This document shows, piece by piece, positions 3,938 through 56,016 of a DNA stretch of 56,027 nt. The notes below the pieces were generated by a model. That model searched no databases and was not told the origin of the DNA. It saw only the letters and a list, made by a program, of their open reading frames with translations. Made by a program: the position numbers and the translations under genes. The stretch's first letter is position 1. Each line of letters begins with the position of its first letter. The stretch comes from Nioella sp. MMSF_3534 (GTDB lineage Bacteria; Pseudomonadota; Alphaproteobacteria; Rhodobacterales; Rhodobacteraceae): assembly GCF_030732985.1 (NCBI RefSeq), contig NZ_JASHJX010000027.1, positions 1 to 56,027 on the forward strand. Direction: 5' to 3'.

Positions 3938-4922
3938 GGATCATCTCCCCCGACATGAGCTTGCGGGCGTTCTCTGCCACCGCCTCGGGCGTCGGGACGG
4001 TGATATCCTCAAGCGCCGGGCTGAAGGGCACCGGCACGTCCATCGCCCCCATGCGCAGCACCGGCGCATCAAGGTGATAGAAGGCCTTTTCGTTGATCCG
4101 GCCCGCGATTTCGCCGGTGATGCCGAAGCTCTGGTGGCCTTCATCAACCACGATCACGCGGGAGGTCTTCTTGGCCGACTCGATCAGCGTCTTTTCGTCC
4201 AGCGGCACGATGGTGCGCGGGTCGATCACCTCGGCGCTGATGCCCTCGGCGGCCAGCATCTCGGCGGCCTTTTCACAGACCTGCACCATGGAAGACGTGC
4301 CGATCAGGGTGATGTCCGTGCCTTCGCGCTTGATATTCGCCTCGCCGAAGGGGATCAGGTATTCCTCTTCGGGCACCGGGGCCTTGTCGTTATACATCAG
4401 CTTGTCTTCGAAGATCACGACCGGGTTGTTGTCGCGGATCGCGGTCTTCATCAGCCCCTTGGCCTCATAGGCCGAAGAGGGCAGCGCCACTTTCAGGCCC
4501 GGAATATGGGCCACCAAAGCATGCAGCGATTGCGAGTGCTGTGCGGCCGACCGCCGGGTCGCGCCCAGGTTGGTGCGCAGAACCAGCGGCACGCTCAACT
4601 TGCCGCCTGACATATAATGGGTCTTGGCGGCCTGATTGCAGAGCTGATCCATGATCAGGTAGATGAAATCGCCGAACATAAGATCCACCACGGGGCGGGA
4701 ACCGGTCATGGCGGCGCCGACGGCCAGCCCCATGAAACCGGGCTCGGCGATCGGCGTGTCGACGACGCGCGCTGTGCCGAATTCCTCGACCAGGCCGGAC
4801 AGCACCTTGAACGGCGTGCCCGCCTCGGCCACGTCTTCGCCGATGATGAAGACGGTTTCGTCGCGGCGCATTTCCTCGGCCAGCGCCTCGTTTACCGCCT
4901 GGGACAGGGTGATATTACGCAT
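3927..4922 (-). CDS. 2-oxoacid (acetoin/pyruvate type) dehydrogenase E1 component, beta subunit
   Basis: 331 residues, the usual length for E1 beta. The start MRNITLSQAVNEALAEEM, the GEDVAEAGTPFKV segment, the VDTPIAEPGFMGLAVGAAMTG region (TPP-binding side), and the C-terminal transketolase domain with VIDPRTIVPLDEKTL and VVDEGHQSFG are all typical of AcoB/PdhB. With the alpha subunit it performs thiamine-diphosphate-dependent decarboxylation or cleavage and reductive acylation of the lipoyl arm. The similarity is closest in feel to acetoin-dehydrogenase E1 subunits, but pyruvate or branched-chain use cannot be excluded. It sits between E1 alpha (12 nt gap) and the double-lipoyl gene (11 nt overlap). 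Confidence 0.9.
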   Translation of the reverse strand: MRNITLSQAVNEALAEEMRRDETVFIIGEDVAEAGTPFKVLSGLVEEFGTARVVDTPIAEPGFMGLAVGAAMTGSRPVVDLMFGDFIYLIMDQLCNQAAKTHYMSGGKLSVPLVLRTNLGATRRSAAQHSQSLHALVAHIPGLKVALPSSAYEAKGLMKTAIRDNNPVVIFEDKLMYNDKAPVPEEEYLIPFGEANIKREGTDITLIGTSSMVQVCEKAAEMLAAEGISAEVIDPRTIVPLDEKTLIESAKKTSRVIVVDEGHQSFGITGEIAGRINEKAFYHLDAPVLRMGAMDVPVPFSPALEDITVPTPEAVAENARKLMSGEMIHAA

Positions 4923-10055: not shown

Positions 10056-10269
10056 GTCTCGCCTCAGTTGCTTTTGACGGATTGGGAAGGCCGCAAGAAC
10101 AGCACAGATATCCGTTTTGAACAACAAAATGTTCGAAATGAACAAATCCAATGCGGACCAGAAACCCAAAAAACGCGACCAATGCGTCATTCGGCAGCCC
10201 AAGGGTGATTCCCTGTGGACGGGCCGCCGGGGACAACGAGAATTGATTTCATCTAAGGGAGGAACCAGG
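10056..10269. promoter_or_regulatory. divergent control region between regulator and ABC transporter
   Basis: This 214-bp spacer is AT-rich in its middle (10111-10150). It contains the near-perfect inverted repeat TTGAAC-N8-GTTCGAA (10117-10137), followed by another TGAACAAAT half-site at 10139-10147. These are the most likely operators for the fused HTH regulator. No confident -35/-10 pair could be fixed. A strong ribosome-binding site (GGGAGGAACC) precedes the binding-protein ATG at 10270. Confidence 0.4.
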
Positions 10270-11238
10270 ATGAACATTCGCACCAAGGCCATGATCGCAG
10301 GAACCACCGCACTTGCGGGGCTTGCCCTTGCTGGCGCAGCGTCGGCTCAGGAAACGTTCACGATCGGCATCACTCAGAACAACGTGGGCGTCGACAGCTA
10401 CCAGACGACCTATGAAGAAGCGTTCATCGCCGCAGCAGAAGCAGATCCCAATGTCGAGGTTGTCGTGCTTGACGCGGGCGGCGACGTGTCCCGCCAAATC
10501 GCGCAGATGCAGGACCTCGTGCAGCAGGAAGTCGACGCGATCATCATCTGGCCGACCAACGGTCAGGCCGTGATCCCCGCCGTGCGCGAAGCGTACCAGG
10601 CCGGCATTCCGGTGATCGTCACCAACTCCAACATCGCGGAAGAAGGGTTCGACTTCGTCTCCTCCTTCTCCGGCCCCGACAACATCACCCAGGGCTCGCG
10701 TTCCGCGGAAATCATGTGTGACCGTTTCATCGAGCTTGGCATCGAGAACGAAGCGCGCGTCGTGCAGATCTCCGGTCAGCCCGGCTACACCACCGCCATC
10801 GAGCGGGCGCAGGGTTTCGAAGATCGCCTGCCCGAGGTTTGCCCGAACGTCACGCTGGTCGAAACCCAGCCCGGCAACTGGAACCGCGAAGACTCGCAGC
10901 GCGTGATGGAAGCGTTCCTCGTTCAGTATGACGACATCGACGGCGTCTACTCGGGCGACGACAACATGGGCGTGGGCGCCCTTAACGCAGCGATTGCCGC
11001 AGGCCGCGCCGAAGGCATCACCTTCGTCGGCGCCACCAACTTTGCCGTGGGCTACGACGCCATGGGCCGTGGCGAATACTGGGGCTCGATCTACCAGTCG
11101 CCGGTCGATGACGCAGAGGCCGCCCTGGCCACCGCGATCGCCATCCTGAACGGCGAAGAAGTGCCCTTCCTGAACTACTTCGACACGCCGAAGATCACCC
11201 AGGACAACATGGACGAGTTCGACCGTCCGGTCTTCTGA
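10270..11238 (+). CDS. ABC transporter periplasmic sugar-binding protein (ribose/galactose type)
   Basis: 322 residues, starting at the ATG with GGAGG nine bases upstream rather than the in-frame ATG 51 codons earlier. A Sec signal peptide ends at about residue 25 (AGLALAGAASAQ). The mature protein has the type I periplasmic-binding fold (Peripla_BP_4 class): FTIGITQNNVGVDSYQTT, QIAQMQDLVQQEVDAIIIWP, GVYSGDDNMGVGALNAAIAAGR. It should bind a small sugar, polyol or related solute and deliver it to the two BPD_transp_2 permeases downstream. It is the first gene of the rightward arm and the most strongly translated by its RBS. A stem-loop follows, which would favour a higher level of this transcript segment, as is usual for binding-protein genes. 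Confidence 0.9.
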   Translation: MNIRTKAMIAGTTALAGLALAGAASAQETFTIGITQNNVGVDSYQTTYEEAFIAAAEADPNVEVVVLDAGGDVSRQIAQMQDLVQQEVDAIIIWPTNGQAVIPAVREAYQAGIPVIVTNSNIAEEGFDFVSSFSGPDNITQGSRSAEIMCDRFIELGIENEARVVQISGQPGYTTAIERAQGFEDRLPEVCPNVTLVETQPGNWNREDSQRVMEAFLVQYDDIDGVYSGDDNMGVGALNAAIAAGRAEGITFVGATNFAVGYDAMGRGEYWGSIYQSPVDDAEAALATAIAILNGEEVPFLNYFDTPKITQDNMDEFDRPVF

Positions 11239-45975: not shown

Positions 45976-47442
45976 ATGCGCTTTTTCCGCCGCTCCCTTG
46001 CGGGGCTTTTTCTGATTTCGCTCACGCTCGGGCTGCTGGTCTGGGCGGGGTCCACGATTTATGCGTCCCTGCAAGCGCGCTGGGCCGAAGAAGGCCGCCC
46101 TGCCATTGCCCGCGAGCGGGTTTTTTCGGCGGAAGTCGTGACGCTGACCTTGCAGGACGCAACGCCGGTTTTGACTGCCTTTGGCGAGATCAACAGCCGC
46201 CGCACGCTGGAATTGCGGGCCCCGGCGGCGGGGACGGTTCTGGAACTGGCCGACGGGTTTGAAAACGGCGGCGAAGTGGCCGAGGGTGCGCTGTTGCTGC
46301 GCATCGACCCGGCGGAGGCGCAATCGGCGCTGGATGTGACCGCCACCGACCTGCGAGAAGCCGAGAACACGCTGGCCGAGGCGGAGGCCGCCGTGGAACT
46401 GGCGCGCGAAGATGTGGAGGCCGCCCGCACGCAGGCGGAACTGCGGGACCGGGCGCTGATCCGGCAACAAGACCTGCTGGAACGCGGCGTGGGGTCGGCG
46501 GCAACGGTGGAAACGGCGGAACTGGCGGCGGCGAGCGCCCATCAGGCGGTTCTGTCGCGCCGTCAGGCCTTGGCGCAGGCCGAGGCGCAGCTGGATCAGG
46601 CGGGCACCGCGCTGGAGCGTCGCAGGATTGCGCTGGCCGAGGCCGAGCGGGTGCTGGCGGAAACCGAGCTGCGGGCGGAATTTGCGGGCGTGCTGGCCGA
46701 TGTGACCGTGGTTCAGGGACGGCTGGTCAACCGCAACGAACAGGTGGCCACTCTGATCGACGCGCAGGCGCTGGAGGTGTCGTTCCGCGTCTCGACCGCG
46801 CAATATGCCCGGCTGTTGGACGAGGACGGGCGACTGCCTCGCGCCGACGTCACCGTGGTGCTGGATGTGCTGGGCATAGATGTGACAGCCCCCGCCCGCC
46901 TGACCCGCGAAAGCGGTGCGGTGGAGGAGGGGCAGTCGGGCCGGTTGCTGTTTGCCGAATTGCTGGAAACCCGCGGCTTCCGGGCCGGGGATTTCGTGAC
47001 CGTGCGTTTGCAGGAACCCGAACTGCAACAGGTCGCCATCCTTCCCGCCACCGCGCTGGATGCCGAGGGGCGGTTGCTGGTTCTGGGTGAGGAAGATCGC
47101 CTTGAAGAGGTGCAGGTCACCCTGCTGCGCCGTCAGGGCGACAATGTCATCATCCGGGCCCCGCCGCATCTGGAAGGGGTTGAGGTGGTCAGTGCCCGCT
47201 CGCCCTCGCTTGGGGCCGGTATCCGGGTAAACCCGCTGCGACCTGCTCAGGACGGGGCGGAGGCCCCGGCGGAACCCGATACCATCGCGCTCGACCCTGA
47301 ACGCCGCGCGCGTTTGATCGCCTTTGTCGAGGGCAACGGCTTCATCCCCGCAGATGTCAAGGAACGGATGCTGCGCCAGTTGCGAGAGGACGAGGTGCCG
47401 CTGCGCATGGTCAACCGTCTCGAAAGCCGGATGGACGGATGA
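45976..47442 (+). CDS. RND efflux periplasmic adaptor (membrane fusion protein)
   Basis: 488 residues. An N-terminal anchor (LAGLFLISLTLGLLVWAG) is followed by a split lipoyl/barrel-sandwich domain (LRAPAAGTVLELADGFENGGEV and LRAEFAGVLADVTVVQGRLV) around a long coiled-coil hairpin (about residues 120-225), then beta-barrel and membrane-proximal domains. A C-terminal extension (DPERRARLIAFVEGNGFIPADVKERML) goes beyond the usual adaptor length. It links the inner-membrane pump to an outer-membrane channel, which is not encoded here. It overlaps the pump gene by 4 nt. Confidence 0.9.
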   Translation: MRFFRRSLAGLFLISLTLGLLVWAGSTIYASLQARWAEEGRPAIARERVFSAEVVTLTLQDATPVLTAFGEINSRRTLELRAPAAGTVLELADGFENGGEVAEGALLLRIDPAEAQSALDVTATDLREAENTLAEAEAAVELAREDVEAARTQAELRDRALIRQQDLLERGVGSAATVETAELAAASAHQAVLSRRQALAQAEAQLDQAGTALERRRIALAEAERVLAETELRAEFAGVLADVTVVQGRLVNRNEQVATLIDAQALEVSFRVSTAQYARLLDEDGRLPRADVTVVLDVLGIDVTAPARLTRESGAVEEGQSGRLLFAELLETRGFRAGDFVTVRLQEPELQQVAILPATALDAEGRLLVLGEEDRLEEVQVTLLRRQGDNVIIRAPPHLEGVEVVSARSPSLGAGIRVNPLRPAQDGAEAPAEPDTIALDPERRARLIAFVEGNGFIPADVKERMLRQLREDEVPLRMVNRLESRMDG

Positions 47443-50400
47443 GACGGCTGCCGGATAGCGCCGGAGGCATCCTCTCCTACTTCACGCGCCACGCGACGGC
47501 TGCGAACCTTCTGCTGGTGGTTCTGATCGTCGTCGGGCTGGCGGTGTTCCCGCGCATGCGGGCGCAGTTCTTCCCCGATGTTGTGGTCGATAATGTCAGC
47601 GTCTCCGTCACCTGGGACGGGGCCGGGGCCGAGGATGTGGACCAGGCCATCGTCGCGGTGCTGGAACCGGTGTTGCTGGCGGTCGAGGGCGTCACGGAAA
47701 GCAGCGCCACCAGCCGCGAGGGGCGGGCGAGCATAAGGCTGGAATTCGAACCCAGTTGGGACATGGGCCGTGCCGCCGATGACGTGCAGGTCGCGGTCGA
47801 TAGCGTGTCCACGCTGCCCGAAGACGCCGAGGACCCGGTGGTCCGGCGCGGGGTCTGGCGCGACCGGGTCACGGATGTGGTGATCTCCGGCCCCGTGGGC
47901 GTCGACCAGCTGGGGCGGTTTGCCGATGAATTCGTCGCGCGGCTGTTTGATCAGGGCGTGACGCGCACGACGATCCGGGGCGTGGCCGCGCCCGAGATCG
48001 TGGTCGAGGTGCCCTCTGCCGAGCTGATCCGAAACGATATCTCCATGGCCGAGATTGCCGCCGCCATCGAGGCAGAGGTCGACACTTCGCCCGCTGGTGA
48101 CGTGACCGGGGCGAATGCCCGTGTTCGGACCGGGGTGGCGCGGCGCTCGGCGGTCGATATCGCGGGGATCGTGCTGCGCTATAACGCGGACGGGTCGGCC
48201 CTGACCATCGGTGATGTTGCGACCGTAACCGAAGAAGGCATCGACCGGGAACGCGCCTATTTCGTGGGCGAGAACCCGGCGATTTCGGTGCGCGTGGACC
48301 GGTCCGACCGGGGCGATGCCATCGGCATCCAGCGCACGGTGGAAGAGGTCGCCGCCGAGATGGAATTGACCTTGCCGGAAGGTGTTGCCATCGAGCTGAT
48401 CCGCACCCGCGCCGAGGCCATTACCGGGCGCCTGAATATCCTGATGGATAACGGGCTGATGGGGCTTGGGCTGGTGGTTTTGCTGCTGTTCCTGTTCCTC
48501 AACGCGCGCACCGCCTTCTGGGTGGCGGCAGGGATTCCCGTGGCGATGCTGTCGGCGATCACGCTGATGTATATCGCCGGGCTGACGATCAACATGATCT
48601 CGCTTTTCGCACTGATCATCACGCTTGGCATCGTGGTGGATGACGCCATTGTCGTGGGGGAACACGCCGATTTCCGCGTGCGGCGGTTGGGGGAAACCCC
48701 GGTTCAGGCGGCAGAAAACGCCGCCCGCCGCATGGCCGCGCCGGTGTTTTCCGCGACCGTCACGACGGTGCTGGCCTTTGCCGGGCTGGTCGCCATCGGC
48801 GGGCGGTTCGGCGAGTTGATCGCCGATATCCCCTTCACCGTGATCGCGGTGCTGATGGCAAGCCTTGTGGAATGCTTCCTGATCCTGCCCAATCACATGG
48901 CCCATGCGCTGGCCCATTCGGACAAGCAGCATTGGTATGACTGGCCAAGCCGGGTGGTGAACCGGGGGTTCGGCTGGTTCCGCGATACACTGTTCCGCCC
49001 GTTGATGCGGCTGGTGATCTGGGCGCGCTACCCGGTGCTGGCGGGGGTGATCCTGATCCTGGCCAGTCAGGTTGCGGTTTTCATCCGGGGCGATGTGACA
49101 TGGCGGTTCTTCAACGCGCCGGAACAATCCTCGGTCTCTGGCAATTTCGCCATGCTGGAGGGCGCCAGCCGCGATGACAGCCTTGAGATGATGCGCGAGA
49201 TGCAGCGCGCCACGGCTGCCGTCGCGGCCCGGTATGAGGAGGAATACGGGCTGAGCCCCCTGACCTTCGTTCTGGCCGAGATCGGTGGCACCACCGGGCG
49301 CGGCCTGGCCGTCGCTGACAATAAGGATGCCGATCTGCTGGGCTCCATCGCCATCGAGCTGATCGACGCCGACCTGCGGCCCTATTCCAGCTTTCAGTTC
49401 GTGGCCGACCTACAGGACGAGGTGCGCCAGCATCCGCTGGCCGAGGCCGTCAGTTTCCGTGGCTGGCGCGGCGGGCCGGGGGGCGATGCGCTGGATATCC
49501 AGCTATTCGGGGCCGAGGCGGAGGTGCTGAAATCCGCCGCCATGGCGATCCAGACCGCGCTGGCCGCCTACCCGGAAGTGTCGGGCCTGGAGGATACGCT
49601 GGCCTATGACCGCGAGGAGCTGATCCTGGAACTGACCCCGCAGGGGCAGGCGCTGGGCTTCGATATCGGCTCGCTCGGTCGGGTGCTGCGCGCCCGTCTG
49701 AACGGGGTGGAGGCCGCGACCTTCCCCTCGGGCGTGCGTACCGCGTCGATCCGGGTGGAGCTGCCGCAGGATGAGCTGACCGCCGATTTCCTCGACCGGA
49801 CCCTGCTGCGCACGGCGACGGGGGAATATGTTCCGCTGGCCGATCTGGTGTCCGTCACCTCGCGGATCGGCTTTTCCACCATCGAACGGGAAAACGGGCT
49901 GCGGCTGGTCTCGGTCACCGGCGATCTGTCAGAGGACGACCCGGCCCGCGCCGAACAGGTGATGGAAGAGCTGCGAGAGGTGATCCTGCCGCAGATCGAG
50001 GCCGATTACGGCGTCGGATACCGGCTGGCCGGGCTGGCAGAGCAGGAAAACGATTTCCTGAATGACGCGATGCTGGGCTTTGGTCTGTGCCTTGTGGGGA
50101 TCTACCTGGTGCTGGCCTGGATTTTCGCCAGCTGGACGCGGCCGATCGTGGTGATGGCGATCATCCCCTTCGGGCTGGTGGGCACGATCTATGGCCATGC
50201 CGCATGGGACGTGCCTTTGAGCATGTTCACCGTGGTGGGGCTGATCGGGATGACCGGGATCATCATCAACGATTCCATCGTGCTGATCACGACGGTGGAC
50301 GACTACGCCCGCGACCGGGGGCTGGTGCCTGCGATTGTCGATGCGGTGGCAGACCGGTTGCGTCCGGTGCTGCTGACCACGCTGACCACGGTTCTGGGGC

Positions 50401-50840
50401 TGGCGCCGCTGCTTTATGAACGCTCTGCCGATGCGCAATTCCTGAAACCCACGGTGATCACGCTGGTCTATGGGCTTGGCTTTGGCCTGTTCATCGTGCT
50501 GCTGGTGGTGCCGTCCATTCTGGCCATGCAACAGGACGTGGCACGGCAGATGCAGGCGCTGCGCCGGGGGCTAAGAACGGCGGCGCGCGCGCCGGCTCTG
50601 GCGGCGGCGGTGGGGCTGGCTGTTGTCGCGGTTGCGGCGCTCTTCGCGGCAACGCTTGGCGCTCAGATCGTCACGGGCGCGATGTGGGCGCCGCTGGCGT
50701 CACAGGTTCCGCTGGAGGGTGCACGCGGGGCGTTCCTGGGCTTCCTCGGCGGCACGGCGGCAATCTGCTTTGGGTTTTGGATCTTGGGCCTCTTCCTGGT
50801 TGGGGTCATGTCGCTGAGACGCGCAATCCAGTCTTCCTGA
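47439..50840 (+). CDS. RND efflux pump inner-membrane subunit
   Basis: 1133 residues, AcrB/MMPL-type HAE/HME superfamily. The first helix (NLLLVVLIVVGLAVFPRMRAQFFPDVV) is followed by two large periplasmic porter regions. The helix-4 motif TLGIVVDDAIVVGEH carries the proton-relay Asp pair. The second half ends in GLIGMTGIIINDSIVLITTVDD and RLRPVLLTTLTTVLGLAPLLYE. Beyond the standard last helix about 95 residues add two more transmembrane helices (ALAAAVGLAVVAVAALFAATLGA and FLGGTAAICFGFWILGLFLVG). It exports an unknown compound by proton antiport. Confidence 0.93.
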   Translation: MRRLPDSAGGILSYFTRHATAANLLLVVLIVVGLAVFPRMRAQFFPDVVVDNVSVSVTWDGAGAEDVDQAIVAVLEPVLLAVEGVTESSATSREGRASIRLEFEPSWDMGRAADDVQVAVDSVSTLPEDAEDPVVRRGVWRDRVTDVVISGPVGVDQLGRFADEFVARLFDQGVTRTTIRGVAAPEIVVEVPSAELIRNDISMAEIAAAIEAEVDTSPAGDVTGANARVRTGVARRSAVDIAGIVLRYNADGSALTIGDVATVTEEGIDRERAYFVGENPAISVRVDRSDRGDAIGIQRTVEEVAAEMELTLPEGVAIELIRTRAEAITGRLNILMDNGLMGLGLVVLLLFLFLNARTAFWVAAGIPVAMLSAITLMYIAGLTINMISLFALIITLGIVVDDAIVVGEHADFRVRRLGETPVQAAENAARRMAAPVFSATVTTVLAFAGLVAIGGRFGELIADIPFTVIAVLMASLVECFLILPNHMAHALAHSDKQHWYDWPSRVVNRGFGWFRDTLFRPLMRLVIWARYPVLAGVILILASQVAVFIRGDVTWRFFNAPEQSSVSGNFAMLEGASRDDSLEMMREMQRATAAVAARYEEEYGLSPLTFVLAEIGGTTGRGLAVADNKDADLLGSIAIELIDADLRPYSSFQFVADLQDEVRQHPLAEAVSFRGWRGGPGGDALDIQLFGAEAEVLKSAAMAIQTALAAYPEVSGLEDTLAYDREELILELTPQGQALGFDIGSLGRVLRARLNGVEAATFPSGVRTASIRVELPQDELTADFLDRTLLRTATGEYVPLADLVSVTSRIGFSTIERENGLRLVSVTGDLSEDDPARAEQVMEELREVILPQIEADYGVGYRLAGLAEQENDFLNDAMLGFGLCLVGIYLVLAWIFASWTRPIVVMAIIPFGLVGTIYGHAAWDVPLSMFTVVGLIGMTGIIINDSIVLITTVDDYARDRGLVPAIVDAVADRLRPVLLTTLTTVLGLAPLLYERSADAQFLKPTVITLVYGLGFGLFIVLLVVPSILAMQQDVARQMQALRRGLRTAARAPALAAAVGLAVVAVAALFAATLGAQIVTGAMWAPLASQVPLEGARGAFLGFLGGTAAICFGFWILGLFLVGVMSLRRAIQSS

Positions 50841-51094
50841 CCACGCGATTGTGTCGCGAGACCTCCTGCGAGAATCTTCCAAAAGATGCCTTCTGTGGAT
50901 CCTCGGGGGTTGGCACGCAGGCCGATTGTAATTTCCATTCCGTGTAGCAGGCTGAAGTCGACCCCTCAGTAATCTGGAATGTGAATAGTTGACAAAGATC
51001 AACGAATAGACCTTCGGATCCTTTTACACTACCCTTGTCTTCAAGGTTTGAGGTTCTGGAGAACCGTGGCGATCTGCAAGGGGGGGTATGAGCG
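50841..51094 (+). promoter_or_regulatory. spacer before the Hint array
   Basis: 254 bp, lower in GC than the flanking genes. TTGACA at 50989-50994 is a perfect -35 hexamer but no good -10 lies 16-18 bases downstream (TACACT at 51025 is too far), so the promoter is uncertain. AAGGGGGGG precedes the first Hint gene. No gene or clear terminator is seen. Confidence 0.3.
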
Positions 51095-51979
51095 ATGGCA
51101 CAAGACTATGAGGTGGCGTCATTCGCACCGGTCCATCCGGCGTTGGGCTTTTTGTCCGTTCAGAATGTTTCGACGATCATAGGAAGCTCCGATACCGATG
51201 ACGGTACGTGGGATCTGGGCGACAGGTTTCTCGAGAGCTCTACCAATCGCCTTTTTGACGGTTTCTACGAAGACGCGTCTGGCAATCTGTTCCTTGTTTT
51301 TGTCAACAGCTCTGGCGACATCACGGAACTCGTGTCGCCAAACTCAACAGGAGCCTATCCGACCCACGTTGATGATATCCCGGCCTATACCCGGTCTCAG
51401 CTTGCGCTGTGCTTTTTGGCAGGGACGCGGATCACCGTGCCGGACGGTGAGCGACGGGTGGAGACCCTTAGCATAGGGGACAGGTTGTCTACGCAGGATG
51501 GCCAGACCGCAAAGGTCAAATGGATCGGTCGCCAGACCGTCTCCACCCGCTTCGGCCCTGCAGAGCGCCTGATGCCGGTGCGCTTTGCCGCCGGGTCTCT
51601 GGGCGCGGACCTGCCACATACCGACCTGACCGTGACTGCCGATCACGGAATGCTGGTGGACGGGGTGATCTGTCATGCGGGGGCGCTGGTGAACGGAACC
51701 ACGATCACCCGCGTGCCGCTGGCCGTGATGGGCGAGAGCTACACCGTCTACCACATCGAGACCGAGGAACATGAGATCATCCTCGCCAATGGTGCCCTCG
51801 CCGAGACGTTTATCGACAATGTCAGCCGCCGGGTCTTCGACAACTATGCAGAGTTCGAGTCGCTTTATGGCGAGGTGCCGGAGATGGAGGAACTGCCCTA
51901 CCCCCGTGCGATGTCCGCGCGGCAGGTGCCGGGGAGGGTCACCGTTCGTCTTGGCCGCTCCCGCAGTGCTTATTGCTGA
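51095..51979 (+). CDS. Hint-domain protein 1 of 4, short unknown N-terminal domain
   Basis: 294 residues. Residues 1-105 are a polar, beta-rich domain without recognised family and without a Sec signal (FDGFYEDASGNLFLVFVNSSG). Cys106 starts the Hint module: CFLAGTRITVPDGERRVETL, WIGRQTVSTRFGPAERLMPV, block-B TVTADHGML, and VYHIETEEHEIILANGA. The usual C-terminal His-Asn of inteins is absent. A tail (FIDNVSRRVFDNYAEFESLY, then PEMEELPYPRAMSARQVPGR) follows. By family knowledge, Cys1 plus block-B Thr/His supports N-S acyl shift and cleavage before Cys106. The N-terminal part uses less GC-rich codons than the Hint part, suggesting different histories. Confidence 0.85.
   Translation: MAQDYEVASFAPVHPALGFLSVQNVSTIIGSSDTDDGTWDLGDRFLESSTNRLFDGFYEDASGNLFLVFVNSSGDITELVSPNSTGAYPTHVDDIPAYTRSQLALCFLAGTRITVPDGERRVETLSIGDRLSTQDGQTAKVKWIGRQTVSTRFGPAERLMPVRFAAGSLGADLPHTDLTVTADHGMLVDGVICHAGALVNGTTITRVPLAVMGESYTVYHIETEEHEIILANGALAETFIDNVSRRVFDNYAEFESLYGEVPEMEELPYPRAMSARQVPGRVTVRLGRSRSAYC
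51410..51979 (+). repeat. Hint module copy 1
   Basis: Encodes residues 106-294 of the first protein. It is nearly identical in protein to the modules at 52783, 53882 and 55390, and shares a 51-base exact match (51799-51849) with copy 2 (53172-53222). Differences elsewhere are mostly synonymous. Confidence 0.9.
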
Positions 51980-52131
51980 TCGCCACGCACGACCGTCATG
52001 GATGAAAGGTCTGGCCCAGATTCAATTTGGTGTTGTCCTGTTGTCATCGGACACCTAGGGTCGCCGATACTACTCATGCGCAATGGTTTTTCAGCCTCAT
52101 GCGCCGTCGATAGCCATATTAGGAGAAGCCA

Positions 52132-53346
52132 ATGCCCGTTTCCGTTGGAGATATCTATTTCACGTCGCTGATCACCGATCCCGATGGGTCGAACGCGGAC
52201 TCCTTTTCCTTTGTGACGACGACGAATATCGCGGCGGGCGAAACCATCACCTTCCACCAGCCAGAGGCTCTCGGGGATGGGTTTTTCACCTACACGGTGG
52301 GGGTTGGCGGCCTGTCGGCCCTGGATCAGGTGGTGATCATTCTGCCCAACAATAGCTCGGCAACGGTTCAATCCGATCCCTCCGGAGGCTCAATCTCCGG
52401 CTTCACAGGCACCATTTCGATCACCTCATCTGACAACCTTATTGCCGGTTCGGGCGGGCAGGTGATCGCCGCGATCAGCAATGGCGGTTTGTGGAACCAG
52501 ACTTTAACGAACCTATCGGTCACCACGGATACTCTGACGGTGACCGGCCTGTCGGACAGCGCATTGAACACTTTCATCGCAAACAATCCGACACTCGCCA
52601 GCCCCGCGGTCGAGGATCTCGATAATTTTACGAATGTCCGAGACAACATGATGTTCACTGGCGGTGACATCACCCTACACGGGGACGATCACAATTACTG
52701 GACCGGAACAAACGACCCAGTCAGCCATACCAACCCCGATGTGAATGGCACGACCTACGCCACTCAGGCTGCCAATGTGACGTGCTTTCTTGCCGGAAGC
52801 CTGATCTCCACAATTGACGGGGAGAAGCCGGTTGAATCGCTCTCCATCGGCGATCTCATCGTTTCTCAGAATGGCAGTTGCACGCCCGTCAAATGGATCG
52901 GACGTCAGACCGTGTCCACCCGCTTCGGCCCCGCCGAAAGGCTGATGCCTGTCCGCTTTGCTGCCGGGTCTCTGGGCGAGGGCCTGCCGCATACGGACCT
53001 GACGGTCACCGCCGATCACGGGATGCTTGTTGGCGGCGTCATCTGCCACGCGGGCGCGCTGGTGAACGGTACCACGATCACGCGGGTGCCGCTGGCCGAG
53101 ATGGGCGAGAGCTACACCGTCTACCATATCGAGACGGAAGAGCACGAAATCATCCTCGCCAATGGTGCCCCCGCCGAGACGTTTATCGACAATGTCAGCC
53201 GCCGGGTCTTCGACAACTATGCCGAGTTCGAGGCGCTCTACGGCGATGTGCCCGAGATGGAAGAGCTGCCTTACCCCCGTGCGATGTCCGCGCGGCAGGT
53301 GCCGGGGTGGGTGATACGGGCAATCGCGGGTGCAAAGGTCGCCTAA
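52132..53346 (+). CDS. Hint-domain protein 2 of 4, long N-terminal beta domain
   Basis: 404 residues. ATG with AGGAG eight bases upstream. Residues 1-217 form a Thr/Ser/Asn-rich beta domain; the opening VGDIYFTSLITDPDGSNADS and AAGETITFHQ resemble the lamin-tail-like modules of bacterial surface proteins (GDIxFxGxxxDxxDxFxF...LAAGTxIxFTD), a weak similarity. Cys218 begins the Hint module, closest to copy 1 in its 3' half. There is no Sec signal peptide. It has its own 152-bp upstream spacer, so each gene of the array may be separately transcribed. Confidence 0.85.
   Translation: MPVSVGDIYFTSLITDPDGSNADSFSFVTTTNIAAGETITFHQPEALGDGFFTYTVGVGGLSALDQVVIILPNNSSATVQSDPSGGSISGFTGTISITSSDNLIAGSGGQVIAAISNGGLWNQTLTNLSVTTDTLTVTGLSDSALNTFIANNPTLASPAVEDLDNFTNVRDNMMFTGGDITLHGDDHNYWTGTNDPVSHTNPDVNGTTYATQAANVTCFLAGSLISTIDGEKPVESLSIGDLIVSQNGSCTPVKWIGRQTVSTRFGPAERLMPVRFAAGSLGEGLPHTDLTVTADHGMLVGGVICHAGALVNGTTITRVPLAEMGESYTVYHIETEEHEIILANGAPAETFIDNVSRRVFDNYAEFEALYGDVPEMEELPYPRAMSARQVPGWVIRAIAGAKVA
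52783..53346 (+). repeat. Hint module copy 2
   Basis: Encodes residues 218-404 of the second protein, 187 residues. Block-B TVTADHGML and the tail PEMEELPYPRAMSARQVPG are as in copy 1; one notable change is Val-Gly for Val-Asp after HGML. Confidence 0.9.
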
Positions 53347-53491
53347 AACGGATATTTCACTTTTAATTCAATGCGTTGCTTCGCCCTGCCCGCGGGATTG
53401 CAGTCCAGTGGATCGCAGGCTTGACGCCGCATTTGGCTTGGGTGCAGTGTCACGGGATTGAGCTTGCAGACAGATTACGGGGGAACCAGTT

Positions 53492-54445
53492 ATGCCAACG
53501 TCATTCACTTTCGGATCTTTTGCCTACTGCAATGCCAGGGGGCGGACAGACGGCGGCGATGAAGGCACGTTCCAGGTTGTCGCCACGATCGATGACGGCG
53601 TGGTTTCGGTCGGGGACGAGGTGTCGCTTTCCGGGTTGCCGTCGCACATTCTGTTGGAATTCTTCGACGCCGCCGGTGTCTCCGGGCCTCTCTACTATCT
53701 CGGGACCGGCGTTTTCGATGGCAGCACGGGCTATGTATTCGGCACCGCTGCGACCGTGGGCGACAGCGACGGCCTGTTCACCACATACGATTCTTCTACG
53801 GCAGGAAGCCCCGATGCGGGGTCTGATGTGGAGTTCTTCAAGGACAATCCAGGCAGCCAGACCCTTGGGACGTCACCGGCCTGTTTCCTTGCCGGGGCGA
53901 TGATTGCAACGCCCGCGGGCGAGGTCGCGGTCGAGACCCTTGAGATGGGCGACCAAATTCTGACCACCGAGGGTCATGCGGTCTTGGTCAAATGGATCGG
54001 CCGCCAGACCGTCTCCACCCGCTTCGGCCCTGCTGAGCGGCTGATGCCGGTGCGGTTTGCGGCTGGCTCGCTCGGCGATGGCCTGCCGCATTCTGACCTG
54101 ACCGTCACTGCCGACCACGGGATGCTGGTGGATGGGGTCATTTGCCACGCCGGGGCTTTGGTCAACGGAACCACGATCACCCGCGTTCCTCTGGCCGAGA
54201 TGGGGGAGACTTACACGGTTTACCATATCGAGACCGAGGAGCATGAGATCATCCTCGCCAATGGCGCACCTGCGGAGACCTTCATTGACAATGTCTCCCG
54301 ACGCGCCTTCGACAACTATTCAGAGTTCGAGGCGCTCTACAGCGATGTGCCCGAGATGGAAGAACTGCCTTACCCCCGTGCGATGTCTGCGCGGCAGGTG
54401 CCGGCGCGGATTCGGCGCATCTCGTCCGCACAAAGAGTCGCGTGA
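53492..54445 (+). CDS. Hint-domain protein 3 of 4, short N-terminal domain
   Basis: 317 residues, ATG with GGGGGA ten bases upstream. Residues 1-130 form a Gly/Asp-rich beta domain (VGDEVSLSGLPSHILLEFF, YYLGTGVFDGSTGYVFGTAATVGD) with no recognised family and no signal peptide. Cys131 begins the Hint module (CFLAGAMIATPAGEVAVETL), whose first third is closest to copy 4 (ATPAGEVAVE) rather than to its neighbours 1 and 2. The tail is PEMEELPYPRAMSARQVPAR. Confidence 0.85.
   Translation: MPTSFTFGSFAYCNARGRTDGGDEGTFQVVATIDDGVVSVGDEVSLSGLPSHILLEFFDAAGVSGPLYYLGTGVFDGSTGYVFGTAATVGDSDGLFTTYDSSTAGSPDAGSDVEFFKDNPGSQTLGTSPACFLAGAMIATPAGEVAVETLEMGDQILTTEGHAVLVKWIGRQTVSTRFGPAERLMPVRFAAGSLGDGLPHSDLTVTADHGMLVDGVICHAGALVNGTTITRVPLAEMGETYTVYHIETEEHEIILANGAPAETFIDNVSRRAFDNYSEFEALYSDVPEMEELPYPRAMSARQVPARIRRISSAQRVA
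53882..54445 (+). repeat. Hint module copy 3
   Basis: Encodes residues 131-317 of the third protein. Shares the ATPAGEVAVE start with copy 4 and the rest with all copies; ends in a divergent, basic tail. Confidence 0.9.
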
Positions 54446-54666
54446 CATACCGCCTGAATGATTTGCCATTCAACTATTGACAGGCGATTTCAGAGGGTTA
54501 GGGTTCGGCCCGTGGGGGACGGTTATTTTTGACCGCTTCGTTGGCTTGGTATCAGCGTTTTTGTTGAGGCCTTTTTGATCCAGCGGCCCGGTGTGACGGG
54601 CATCGGCCGGAGATCGCGTGGCTTGAAGCGCCCCCGCGCAAATGTTGATAGAAAACCGAGGGCGAC
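54446..54666 (+). promoter_or_regulatory. spacer before Hint gene 4 with possible promoter
   Basis: TTGACA at 54477-54482 is followed, after a 16-bp spacer, by TAGGGT (54499-54504), a weak -10. Two T-rich patches (54525-54530 and 54557-54575) interrupt a mixed-GC sequence. GAGGG precedes the next ATG. This is consistent with independent transcription of the fourth gene. Confidence 0.3.
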
Positions 54667-55953
54667 ATGGCGACATTCATCGGCGGATTCGACGGGATTG
54701 TTCGTCTCTACGGCACCTCGGATGACGGCACCGCGCTGTCCTGGACATCCACTCAGTCTCAGACCGGTGCCGGTAATACTATTACCGATACCAATGACGA
54801 TGGCGACCTCGATATCGGGCTCGACCATGTCGCAAACCAGCTCTACACCTTCTCTGGTTACTATTACACGGATCAGAACGGGACACAGCATCCGATCTTT
54901 GAACGGGCTTACAACATCCCGTCCATTGCGCCGCACATCATCGTCTACAGCACGTCCGAGGTTGACCTGGCCGCCGAGTTCCCTAGCTCGGGCGCGATTA
55001 CGGACAGTACGGACAACCTCCCGTTTGGTACGACAGGGTATCACGACTACACACATCTCATGAGATTGGACGGCGTGACTGATGACGGAACGACACTGTC
55101 TTGGACAACCAAGTTGCCGCCTTTCTACCAGCCCCATACCGTGGTGGATCAGAACAATGACGGCAATCTCGATATCGGGATCGACACCGTCGATGGCACC
55201 GACTGGGTGTTCAGCGGCTACTACTACACGCATTCGGACGGCAGCGAGCATCCGATCTTCTATTCTGCCGCCAATGGCTCTTACTACATCCCCTACAACC
55301 GGGCTGAAACCGAACTGGGGGATGACGTGCCGAGTTCCGGTTCGACCACGAATTTCTCAAACAATTTCGAGCCCAATGGCGCGCCGCTCTGCTTTGCCGA
55401 AGGCAGCCTGATCGCAACGCCAGCAGGCGAGGTCGCGGTGGAGCGCCTGTGCATCGGGGATACGGTCCTGACTGCCGAGGGCCGTGCGGTGCTCGTCAAG
55501 TGGATCGGTCGCCAGACGGTGATGACCCGGTTCGGCCCCGCAGAACGGCTGATGCCGGTGCGGTTTGCGGCGGGGTCTCTTGGTGCGGGCCTGCCGCATG
55601 CTGACCTGACCGTCACCGCCGACCACGGGATGTTGGTGGACGGTGTGATCTGTCATGCCGGGGCGCTGGTGAATGGGACGTCCATCACGCGGGTGCCGCT
55701 CGCCGAGATGGGGGAGACCTACACCGTCTATCATGTGGAAACCGAGGAACATGAGATCATCCTCGCAAATGGTGCGCCTGCGGAAACGTTTATCGACAAT
55801 GTCTCCCGCCGCGTCTTCGACAACTTCGCCGAGTTCGAGGCGCTTTATGGGGACGTGCCGGAGATGGAAGAACTGCCTTACCCCCGCGCGATGTCTGCGC
55901 GGCAGGTGTCGGCATCAATCGTCGGGAAGCTGAGCAGGAGGGCGGCCGCTTAG
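54667..55953 (+). CDS. Hint-domain protein 4 of 4, duplicated Ca-loop N-terminal domain
   Basis: 428 residues. The N-terminal 241 residues contain two copies of a unit of about 120 residues (starting near residues 13 and 133). Each holds DDGTxLSWT, an EF-hand/dockerin-like loop (DTNDDGDLDIG and DQNNDGNLDIG), then SGYYYT...HPIF and PSSG. The loops have Asp/Asn at the 1, 3, 5 and 9 positions typical of calcium binding. Cys242 begins the Hint module (CFAEGSLIATPAGEVAVERL). There is no signal peptide. The duplication plus calcium loops suggests an extracellular structural or adhesive domain. Confidence 0.85.
   Translation: MATFIGGFDGIVRLYGTSDDGTALSWTSTQSQTGAGNTITDTNDDGDLDIGLDHVANQLYTFSGYYYTDQNGTQHPIFERAYNIPSIAPHIIVYSTSEVDLAAEFPSSGAITDSTDNLPFGTTGYHDYTHLMRLDGVTDDGTTLSWTTKLPPFYQPHTVVDQNNDGNLDIGIDTVDGTDWVFSGYYYTHSDGSEHPIFYSAANGSYYIPYNRAETELGDDVPSSGSTTNFSNNFEPNGAPLCFAEGSLIATPAGEVAVERLCIGDTVLTAEGRAVLVKWIGRQTVMTRFGPAERLMPVRFAAGSLGAGLPHADLTVTADHGMLVDGVICHAGALVNGTSITRVPLAEMGETYTVYHVETEEHEIILANGAPAETFIDNVSRRVFDNFAEFEALYGDVPEMEELPYPRAMSARQVSASIVGKLSRRAAA
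54703..55353 (+). repeat. internal duplication in Hint protein 4 N-terminal domain
   Basis: Two units with a 360-base period (starts near 54703 and 55063), similar at protein level: RLYGTSDDGTALSWT versus RLDGVTDDGTTLSWT, each with a calcium-type loop and SGYYYT. The second unit is slightly shorter at its end, where it joins the Hint module. Confidence 0.8.
55390..55953 (+). repeat. Hint module copy 4
   Basis: Encodes residues 242-428 of the fourth protein. CFAEG replaces CFLAG at the start, and TVMTRFGPAERL replaces TVSTRFGPAERL. Block-B and tail are conserved. Confidence 0.9.
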
Positions 55954-56016
55954 GCTCAGGACCCATTGATTTCCGTCTGGCGGCATGATTCACGGCTCGA
56001 AAAAACGAGCGGTAAC

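What the first reader, a model, noticed from the sequence alone, without database searches (positions are those of the whole stretch)
51095..55953. Four-gene array of different N-terminal domains joined to a constant Hint module
Four consecutive genes each end in a near-identical Hint module of 187-189 residues that begins at a Cys (106, 218, 131, 242), while the N-terminal parts differ completely in length and sequence. Hint domains are known self-processing folds (inteins, hedgehog). A constant processing module with swappable cargo suggests a modular system for cleaving, releasing or covalently attaching diverse surface or secreted domains. Established: Hint chemistry. Inference: function and cargo idea.
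Basis: partly seen in the sequence, partly recalled or inferred. Interest (0 to 1): 0.82.

Follow-up and report, generated by a model that had tools for sequence, protein, structure and literature searches.

The report
Cassette array of Hint-domain proteins
Four neighbouring genes of a marine bacterium each join a different small protein to the same self-cutting-type module; they belong to a family of 26 such genes in this genome whose shared module appears to be exchanged between copies, while the attached parts stay distinct.

Summary
The four ORFs (51095-55953) each end in a 187-189-residue module, Pfam Hint_2 plus a ~50-residue tail, starting at Cys 106/218/131/242. AlphaFold/Foldseek give a Hint fold nearest to bacterial-intein-like domains and inteins. 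They are 4 of 26 close copies in this Nioella-related genome; two congeners carry 24 and 45, three none at E<=1e-50. The N-parts are not "completely" different: genes 1 and 4 carry one divergent ~95-residue beta domain, unnamed in Pfam and without a PDB fold match; gene 3 is a marginal member, gene 2 separate. New evidence: (i) the module seems to undergo ectopic gene conversion (ortholog synonymous divergence 0.41, against 0.14 in cargo and 0.15 in neighbouring genes, stepping up near module codon 35); (ii) the array fills a gap that is 17-42 bp in three relatives, and two cargoes sit at different sites in different species; (iii) HlyC acyltransferase genes lie beside Hint_2 genes in 7 of 7 cases in nine genomes and 18 of 30 in a family sample. 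Likely mechanism: exported cargo cut from its module at Cys1 by a hedgehog-type N-S acyl shift, then released or attached to an unknown nucleophile. The chemistry is inferred, not shown. A new variant of a known kind.

The parts
51095..51979 (+). Gene 1 (294 aa): one beta-domain cargo (51095-51409) + Hint module (51410-51976)
   Evidence: ortholog in G004 with cargo dS 0.03 but module dS 0.63
52132..53346 (+). Gene 2 (404 aa): separate, unnamed cargo (52132-52782) + Hint module (52783-53343)
   Evidence: best cargo relative G003_L110_14857, 30% identity, E 1e-7 with composition correction; phmmer finds no relative
53492..54445 (+). Gene 3 (317 aa): cargo marginally related to the beta-domain family (53492-53881) + Hint module (53882-54442)
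   Evidence: E 3.3e-4 with the gene 1 profile only, absent
54667..55953 (+). Gene 4 (428 aa): two tandem beta-domains (about 54721-55020 and 55045-55365) + Hint module (55390-55950)
51515..51976 (+). Gene 1, approximate segment alike among paralogs and apparently subject to gene conversion (module codon ~36 to end)
   Evidence: step in synonymous differences near codon 35, pooled over 13 ortholog pairs; boundary approximate
52888..53343 (+). Gene 2, same segment
   Evidence: by alignment to gene 1; gene 2 itself is not in the 13 pairs
53987..54442 (+). Gene 3, same segment
   Evidence: by alignment to gene 1; gene 3 itself is not in the 13 pairs
55495..55950 (+). Gene 4, same segment; array runs on past the contig end
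   Evidence: by alignment to gene 1; gene 4 itself is not in the 13 pairs
51821..51976 (+). Constant tail of gene 1 (~50 aa after the Hint domain; also 53194-53343, 54293-54442, 55801-55950)
   Evidence: alignment A5; matches in 9 genomes are in Hint ORFs, short remnants or contig-edge pieces as far as listed
47439..50840 (+). Anchor gene: RND-type efflux protein (name by recall) that borders the site; its convergent neighbour lies 17-42 bp away in three relatives without an array here

Best explanation
Each gene encodes an exported precursor: N-terminal cargo (most often one ~95-residue beta domain) + C-terminal Hint_2 module + constant tail. SHOWN by computation: Hint fold, near-invariant Cys1 and block-B His, no His-Asn or +1 nucleophile, family expansion, excess synonymous divergence inside the module, an array occupying an intergenic gap, HlyC linkage. 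INFERRED: the module activates the cargo-Cys1 bond by an N-S acyl shift and cannot splice, so the thioester is broken by water or an outside nucleophile, freeing the cargo (or tagging its C-terminus) after export by a type-I-like route. At DNA level the alike ~460 bp of each module is nearly the only homology between copies. Recombination through it homogenises modules and, in tandem arrays, could drop, add or move cargo units; this leaves species with largely private cargo sets on one common processing end.
For: Hint_2 in all 4 and 80 of 80 aligned members. AF2 model pLDDT 86.3; all 17 PDB matches with E<=0.001 are BIL domains, inteins or Vint. Cys1 in 196 of 196, His79 196 of 197, His115 195 of 196, Glu132 194 of 194 letters at those columns, with Glu-Thr/Ser where inteins have His-Asn (placing by motif; sequences had been chosen for matches reaching the start of the profile). 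Copies: 26/45/24 in 3 of 6 genus genomes, none at E<=1e-50 in 3. Module dS 0.41 vs cargo 0.14 in 13 G000-G004 pairs, higher in 11 of 13, vs 0.15 in 41 neighbour genes; synonymous differences rise from 0.10-0.12 to 0.25-0.32 across module codon ~35. RND-site gap 17/17/42 bp in G001/G005/G247 but 7957 bp with 7 Hint genes in G003. Cargo c18 at different sites in G003 and G004, c10 in G000 and G247. Export: RTX, M10_C and LTD cargoes; N-parts have Lys 0.68%, Cys 0.36% against 2.82% and 0.9% in neighbour genes; HlyC beside Hint_2 in 7 of 7, 18 of 30 in the family sample, against 0 of 10 transporter loci and 0 of 15 window tiles.
Against: No cleavage, ligation, expression or secretion was observed. 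No export signal was predicted with a tool; N-termini were judged by eye. None of 10 type I ABC-transporter loci lies beside a Hint_2 gene, and in the window genome the transporter model TIGR01842 stays below its cut-off (best 464 bits against 510.15, with the rest of the match in an adjoining frame; 7 of 9 genomes are over it). The Nioella genomes without the tight subfamily still have 5-10 other Hint_2 genes, so the subfamily is dispensable. RTX substrates are described as keeping their C-terminal signal unprocessed (PMC3034196, passages), so a self-removed end would be unusual. In 2 of 13 G000-G004, 2 of 7 G000-G003 and 3 of 10 G004-G003 pairs module dS is not above cargo dS. The ortholog's module is often still the closest module, so conversion is patchy. 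Cargo movement rests on two cases. Most arrays are in draft assemblies.
Confidence: 0.6

Rival explanations
1. Hedgehog-like ligase: the module does not merely release cargo but joins its C-terminus to a particular nucleophile (lipid, sugar or protein), with the constant 50-residue tail placed like the sterol-recognition region of hedgehog.
For: Cargo-Hint-tail order as in hedgehog; 22 of ~50 tail columns invariant in 26 and the tail tied to the module; HlyC lysine acyltransferase genes beside Hint_2 genes.
Against: No adduct known; Pfam Hint (PF01079) reaches at best E 0.0015, in 4 of 80 members; the tail as a whole is less conserved than the module (mean column identity 65% against 79%), its end being variable; no named domain in the tail.
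Confidence: 0.2
2. Self-removing C-terminal export signal: module and tail guide the cargo through a type I system and are then cut off by hydrolysis; attachment plays no part.
For: No signal peptide seen by eye; some cargoes are RTX or serralysin-type proteins; HlyC linkage; secreted R. pomeroyi protein YP_168868 showed no peptides from its predicted intein region (PMC2953401, passages read).
Against: Transporter genes not adjacent (0 of 10); tail basic and ending variably, and not found on other proteins as far as listed; that R. pomeroyi intein is internal and has a His-Asn end.
Confidence: 0.4
3. Inter-bacterial toxin or effector family like polymorphic toxins, in mirror order, with variable N-terminal toxins.
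For: Large variable family with constant processing domain; Hint domains occur in such toxins (PT-HINT weak match E 0.033, gene 3).
Against: PT-HINT below its cut-off; consecutive Hint genes with a median gap of 198 bp over 80 adjacent pairs, so little room for an immunity gene in many gaps; no PADLOC match; the commonest cargo domain has no named or folded relative.
Confidence: 0.08
4. The module is a catalytically silent scaffold or stabiliser, and the family is a set of structural surface proteins spread by duplication.
For: Activity was never shown; a Hint fold could lose activity (inference).
Against: Cys1 and block-B His nearly invariant while modules diverge to 47-60% identity across genera.
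Confidence: 0.15
5. High module similarity reflects strong purifying selection alone, with no exchange between copies.
For: Module dN (median 0.162 between paralogs) is far below dS (median 1.12).
Against: Ortholog module dS is about three times that of cargo and neighbours, with a step inside the module; selection on the protein should not raise synonymous divergence locally.
Confidence: 0.1

Closest known systems
Hint_2 proteins (Pfam PF13403), annotated 'Hint domain-containing protein' in alphaproteobacteria
   Same: Same domain, far above cut-off in the four and matched in 80 of 80 members; PF13403 reported overrepresented in strongly responding Rhodobacteraceae (PMC12487129, passages read)
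   Different: No array, cargo family, gene conversion or HlyC linkage seen in the listings and passages of the nine literature searches run (a further query was rejected)
Bacterial intein-like (BIL) domains
   Same: Closest solved folds: 6tmm/6y75 and 2lwy among the top 17; N-terminal Cys, block-B Thr/His; BILs lie in hypervariable regions of nonconserved proteins (PMC7765530, passages)
   Different: Lacks the His-Asn end of A-type BILs; always the C-terminal part here, with its own tail; relation to B-type not settled
Hedgehog (N-signal + Hog/Hint + sterol-recognition region)
   Same: Cargo-Hint-tail order and apparently only the first (N-S shift) step possible
   Different: Bacterial, no homology of cargo or tail found, adduct unknown; one constant module serves many cargoes
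RTX / type I secreted proteins with HlyC
   Same: Some cargoes carry RTX and M10_C; HlyC genes adjacent to Hint_2 genes
   Different: The common cargo domain has no RTX match in Pfam; transporter not adjacent; possible self-removed end
MafB and other polymorphic toxins with Hint or constant regions
   Same: Constant/variable modular family (from recall and paper listings)
   Different: Constant part is C-terminal, little room for immunity genes, no PADLOC match

Membership tests
Hint_2 (PF13403) | Profile score above curated cut-off | tested here: met
   119.6-126.5 bits against 28.4 in all four
HINT superfamily | Hint fold | tested here: met
   AF2 pLDDT 86.3; 17 of 17 PDB matches with E<=0.001 are Hint-fold proteins
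HINT superfamily | Cys1 and block-B Thr/His | tested here: met
   C 196/196, H79 196/197, T76 188/197 (+8 Ser). One of the 197 has no letter at the Cys column (first residue F)
Intein | His-Asn end and +1 nucleophile, internal to a host protein | tested here: not met
   Glu-Thr/Ser-Phe at that place, by motif; module is C-terminal
A-type BIL | C-terminal His-Asn | tested here: not met
   by motif; definition from PMC7765530 passage
B-type BIL | Lacks the C-terminal motif, cleaves at the N end | tested here: inconclusive
   Lacks it; no BIL-type profile was used, cleavage not testable
Hedgehog / Hog | Pfam Hint (PF01079) homology | tested here: inconclusive
   Not listed for the four window proteins at E<=1; 4 of 80 members match at E<=0.01, best 0.0015; L046 16.5 bits against 29.7
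Hedgehog / Hog | C-terminal lipid adduct on cargo | not testable with these tools
   needs mass spectrometry
Type I secretion substrate | C-terminal export signal and transporter | tested here: inconclusive
   TIGR01842 over its cut-off in 7 of 9 genomes, not in the window's own (464 bits against 510.15); no Hint_2 gene beside any of 10 transporter loci; signal not testable
Type I secretion substrate | No N-terminal signal peptide | not tested
   No predictor on hand; N-termini look hydrophilic by eye
Polymorphic toxin (PT-HINT) | PT-HINT homology above cut-off | tested here: not met
   14.9 bits against 27.7 in gene 3, not listed for the other three
Polymorphic toxin (PT-HINT) | Adjacent immunity gene | tested here: inconclusive
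   Consecutive Hint genes with short gaps; small ORFs in gaps were not examined one by one
Gene family under concerted evolution | Shared part diverges more between orthologs at synonymous sites than flanks | tested here: met
   exceptions 2 of 13, 2 of 7 and 3 of 10 pairs

The most novel reading that the evidence does not exclude
A bacterial counterpart of hedgehog processing run as a cassette system: dozens of exported cargo domains per genome are each cut by one shared Hint module and covalently tagged at their new C-terminus by an adduct chosen by the constant tail, with HlyC-type lysine acylation of partner Hint_2 proteins as a second lipidation. The module's DNA is at the same time the recombination handle by which cargo units are swapped between chromosomal sites and species.
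Probability: 0.12. Interest if true: 0.88.

Novelty: new variant of a known kind. Interest (0 to 1): 0.6.

Why it matters
Hint_2 has been reported as overrepresented in strongly responding marine Rhodobacteraceae (PMC12487129, passages), yet the papers searched gave it no function. If the module releases or tags many cargoes, one assay on one module would explain a large unknown protein set, probably exported, and the modules could become ligation tools. The synonymous-divergence step gives a clear, testable case of concerted evolution confined to a processing domain.

Tried and rejected
NCBIfam, PADLOC: no match. PHROGs: two weak matches of unknown function (E 0.019 and 0.085). Fold of the cargo domain: confident model (pLDDT 88.5, pTM 0.83) but no PDB match (best E 0.58) and no viral match (best E 0.30). 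Tail as a general type I signal: searched in 9 genomes; listed matches lie in Hint ORFs, remnants or contig-edge pieces. Calcium loop in cargo: motif in 18 of 197 N-parts against 2.3 expected by shuffling, a minority, so not used as a mechanism. Shared promoter or 5' recombination sequence: only 2 within-genome pairs of upstream 150 bp were similar among 153 genes, so rejected. Plasmid spread: 32 plasmid records match at E<=1e-20, all below 60% identity. Phage or integrase insertion: not searched for. Toxin-immunity reading: see rivals. My first reading that gene 3 clearly belongs to the cargo family was weakened on re-check; gene 2's BLAST relatives (no composition correction, E 4e-13) fall to E 1e-7 with correction and are not seen by phmmer. 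Dropped before counts: ORFs whose match began after profile position 3 or scored below 150 bits, after position 4; ortholog pairs below 70% cargo identity or 70 residues; HlyC matches beyond the 30 loci fetched. Hint_2 neighbours were sought only within about 1.5 kb. The neighbour-gene sets keep a few poor pairs (dN above 0.6: two of 52, one of 39); medians were used. The 139 ORFs come from selected regions of 13 genomes; family-wide copy numbers are capped at 11. N-parts were taken from the stop codon before the gene, so some include untranslated residues, also in the composition figures.
Full report
OBSERVATION. Four + strand ORFs at 51095-51979, 52132-53346, 53492-54445 and 54667-55953 each carry a Pfam Hint_2 domain (E 1.9e-34 to 1.5e-36) that begins at Cys 106, 218 (profile start 217), 131 and 242 and is followed by a constant tail, 187-189 residues in all. 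The modules of genes 2-4 are 78-82% identical to gene 1's. The first ~35 residues vary; the rest is highly alike. The array runs to the end of its contig (56027 bases).

SCALE. The genome (G000, 4.15 Mb in 105 contigs) has 41 Hint_2 matches; 26 form the tight subfamily. In the genus, 3 of 6 genomes hold it, with 26, 45 and 24 matches (some cut by contig ends), and 3 hold none at E<=1e-50, though these have 5-10 other Hint_2 matches. Named relatives are Nioella sediminis JS7-11, N. ostreopsis Z7-4 and an uncultured Nioella. Matching contig lengths identify G004 as the first, G003 as the second and G247 as the third. The window genome is in this genus by the tool's kinship label but is not named. 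Looser relatives occur in Mameliella, Roseovarius, Antarctobacter and others. G247, in about 10 contigs, holds a run of 13. Of adjacent pairs closer than 900 bp, 80 are on the same strand and 1 is opposite.

FOLD AND ACTIVE SITE. AlphaFold2 on gene 1 with 79 relatives gives mean pLDDT 86.3; block means from residue 111 are 83-97 except the last block (47). All 17 PDB matches with E<=0.001 are Hint-fold proteins: BIL domains 6tmm/6y75/2lwy, inteins and a Vint domain. Over 197 modules (139 and 144, 86 shared; chosen for matches reaching the profile start), Cys1 is present in 196 of 196 letters, His79 in 196 of 197, His115 in 195 of 196 and Glu132 in 194 of 194. Where inteins end in His-Asn plus a nucleophile, these have Glu-Thr/Ser-Phe (placing by motif, not by superposition). 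From the established block scheme (PMC7765530, passages read), step 1 (N-S shift) is possible, and splicing and Asn cyclisation are not. This is inference.

CARGO. Iterated profile searches among the 197 N-parts plus 394 decoys (reversed and shuffled) recruit 111 (gene 1), 117 (gene 4), 91 (gene 3, with 2 reversed decoys) and 1 (gene 2); zero decoys for genes 1, 2 and 4. Within the window, genes 1 and 4 find each other (E 3.9e-17 and 4.6e-11); gene 3 is reached only by the gene 1 profile, at E 3.3e-4, and is missed by the genome search with the domain, so it is marginal. None of 80 members has a Pfam match other than Hint families that recurs (three single matches). The second domain of gene 4 folds confidently (pLDDT 88.5, pTM 0.83) as a small beta domain with no PDB match (best E 0.58) and none in the viral library (best E 0.30). 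In nine genomes 73 of 74 matches of this domain lie in an ORF that also holds the module; the other is near the start of a contig (base 287); the three genus genomes without the subfamily have none. Other cargoes of the subfamily: serralysin-type M10_C with RTX, RTX alone, lamin-tail domains. N-parts are poor in Lys (0.68%) and Cys (0.36%) and rich in Gly, Thr, Ser and Asp.

MODULE EXCHANGE. Thirteen cargo orthologs between G000 and G004 have median cargo dS 0.14 and module dS 0.41; the module is higher in 11 of 13. Forty-one neighbouring non-Hint genes have median dS 0.15. For G000-G003: 0.32 against 0.56 in 7 pairs (5 of 7 higher), neighbours 0.26 (52 genes). For G004-G003: 0.33 against 0.61 in 10 pairs (7 of 10), neighbours 0.23 (39 genes). 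The exceptions include pairs whose cargo is itself much diverged (e.g. cargo dS 1.35 against 0.36). Pooled over the 13 G000-G004 pairs, synonymous differences are 0.06-0.14 in cargo and 0.10-0.12 in module codons 1-35, then 0.19, then 0.25-0.32: the step lies inside the module, where paralogs become alike. Gene 1 of the window is the clearest: cargo dS 0.03, module dS 0.63; genes 2-4 have no pair in this test. I read this as patchy ectopic gene conversion; the converted tracts were not mapped to donors. The ortholog's module often remains the closest one, so replacement is not wholesale.

SITES AND MOVEMENT. The gene before the array (47439-50840) and its convergent neighbour are 17, 17 and 42 bp apart (alignment ends) in G001, G005 and G247; in G002 only a 39-residue fragment of the neighbour lies there, 27 bp away, the full gene being elsewhere; the gap is 431 and 451 bp in G217 and G010, contents not examined; it is 7957 bp with seven Hint genes in G003. 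In G004 both sides lie on one contig with three Hint genes between. In G000 the two sides lie on two contigs with at least five genes. Of 139 cargoes, 93 have no partner at 60% identity and 46 fall into 19 shared types. Type c18 sits between the anchors of L034/L126 (one an M16-type peptidase, name by recall) in G004 but between those of L037/L112 in G003. Type c10 sits at the edge of contig C21 in G000 but in G247 in the array whose neighbour gene is of the same family as one in L032 (the gene match in G000 judged from the printed starts). G003's array at the RND site contains a stretch 91% identical over 147 bp to the 3' part of the RND gene, a recombination scar. Upstream sequences are mostly not shared between paralogs, so the module is the main handle. 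That tandem modules let units be looped out and reinserted is inference.

EXPORT AND HLYC. HlyC-type acyltransferase genes (PF02794) occur in 6 of 9 genomes, 7 genes, each within about 1.5 kb of a Hint_2 gene. In a family sample 65 of 295 genomes have matches; of the 30 loci fetched, 18 have a Hint_2 neighbour, and over all 34 distinct loci 22 do. Of the 12 without, at least four lie beside proteins with ten or more RTX-like motifs. Controls: 0 of 10 type I ABC-transporter loci and 0 of 15 window tiles have one; the chance expectation for G000 is about 4%. In G000, G002, G003 (C5) and G004 the partner is a Hint_2 protein outside the tight subfamily; in G003 C79, G217 and G077 HlyC genes lie inside arrays. 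The HlyC link therefore bears on Hint_2 proteins at large, less on the window array, which has no HlyC gene seen beside it. The type I transporter model is over its cut-off in 7 of 9 genomes, not in the window's own.

MECHANISM. Best reading: export of a precursor, N-S acyl shift at Cys1, then hydrolysis or attack by another nucleophile, leaving free or tagged cargo. The constant tail has the position of hedgehog's sterol-recognition region (PMC7765530, passage) but no homology was found and, as far as listed, no second home in nine genomes. Release with self-removal of the export end and hedgehog-like tagging are both open; I favour release. RTX signals are described as unprocessed (PMC3034196, passages), so self-removal would be new; that review also notes nine predicted RTX proteins with weak homology to hedgehog/intein domains. 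In the R. pomeroyi exoproteome (PMC2953401, passages) a type I target showed no peptides from its predicted intein region, a different, internal arrangement but a hint that such processing occurs on this route.

NOVELTY. Parts are known (Hint_2, BIL, hedgehog chemistry, HlyC). Not seen in nine searches of the paper library (listings, and passages of the papers named here and): the arrays, the cargo family, module gene conversion, the HlyC linkage. The library holds open-licence papers only, so absence there is weak evidence.

Noticed in passing
L109 about 10190-10562 (G003): A diverged copy of the 3' end of the RND efflux gene lies between two Hint genes of the array at the same site (91% identical over 147 bp to G003's own gene).
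   Followed up: partly
L115 about 433-1737 (G003:C43): One Hint ORF carries three matches to the constant tail in a row, the first only 15 residues long.
   Followed up: no
L032 3923-4843 and 4874-6217 (G000): The serralysin-type cargo protein that is one 766-residue frame in G003 appears as two separate ORFs here; described only, nothing mended.
   Followed up: no
L037 about 4395-4460 (G000): A run of CAACAG-type hexamer repeats lies just upstream of or at the start of a Hint gene.
   Followed up: no
G000:C21:55635-55760 and G004:C63:24143-24271: Short stand-alone matches to the constant tail in ORFs of 66-68 residues, apparently decayed copies.
   Followed up: no
L031 7594-8121 (G000), with relatives in G003, G004 and G217: Phage tail-collar (PF07484) protein gene with a GNAT-like gene (label by recall) and two others, a conserved cluster between two Hint genes.
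   Followed up: partly
L140 (G077:C1 about 364-368 kb): Three HlyC-type genes interleaved with an array of seven Hint genes.
   Followed up: partly
window 50001-56000: G+C is 0.59-0.61 around the array against 0.605-0.685 elsewhere in the window; not distinctive by itself.
   Followed up: no
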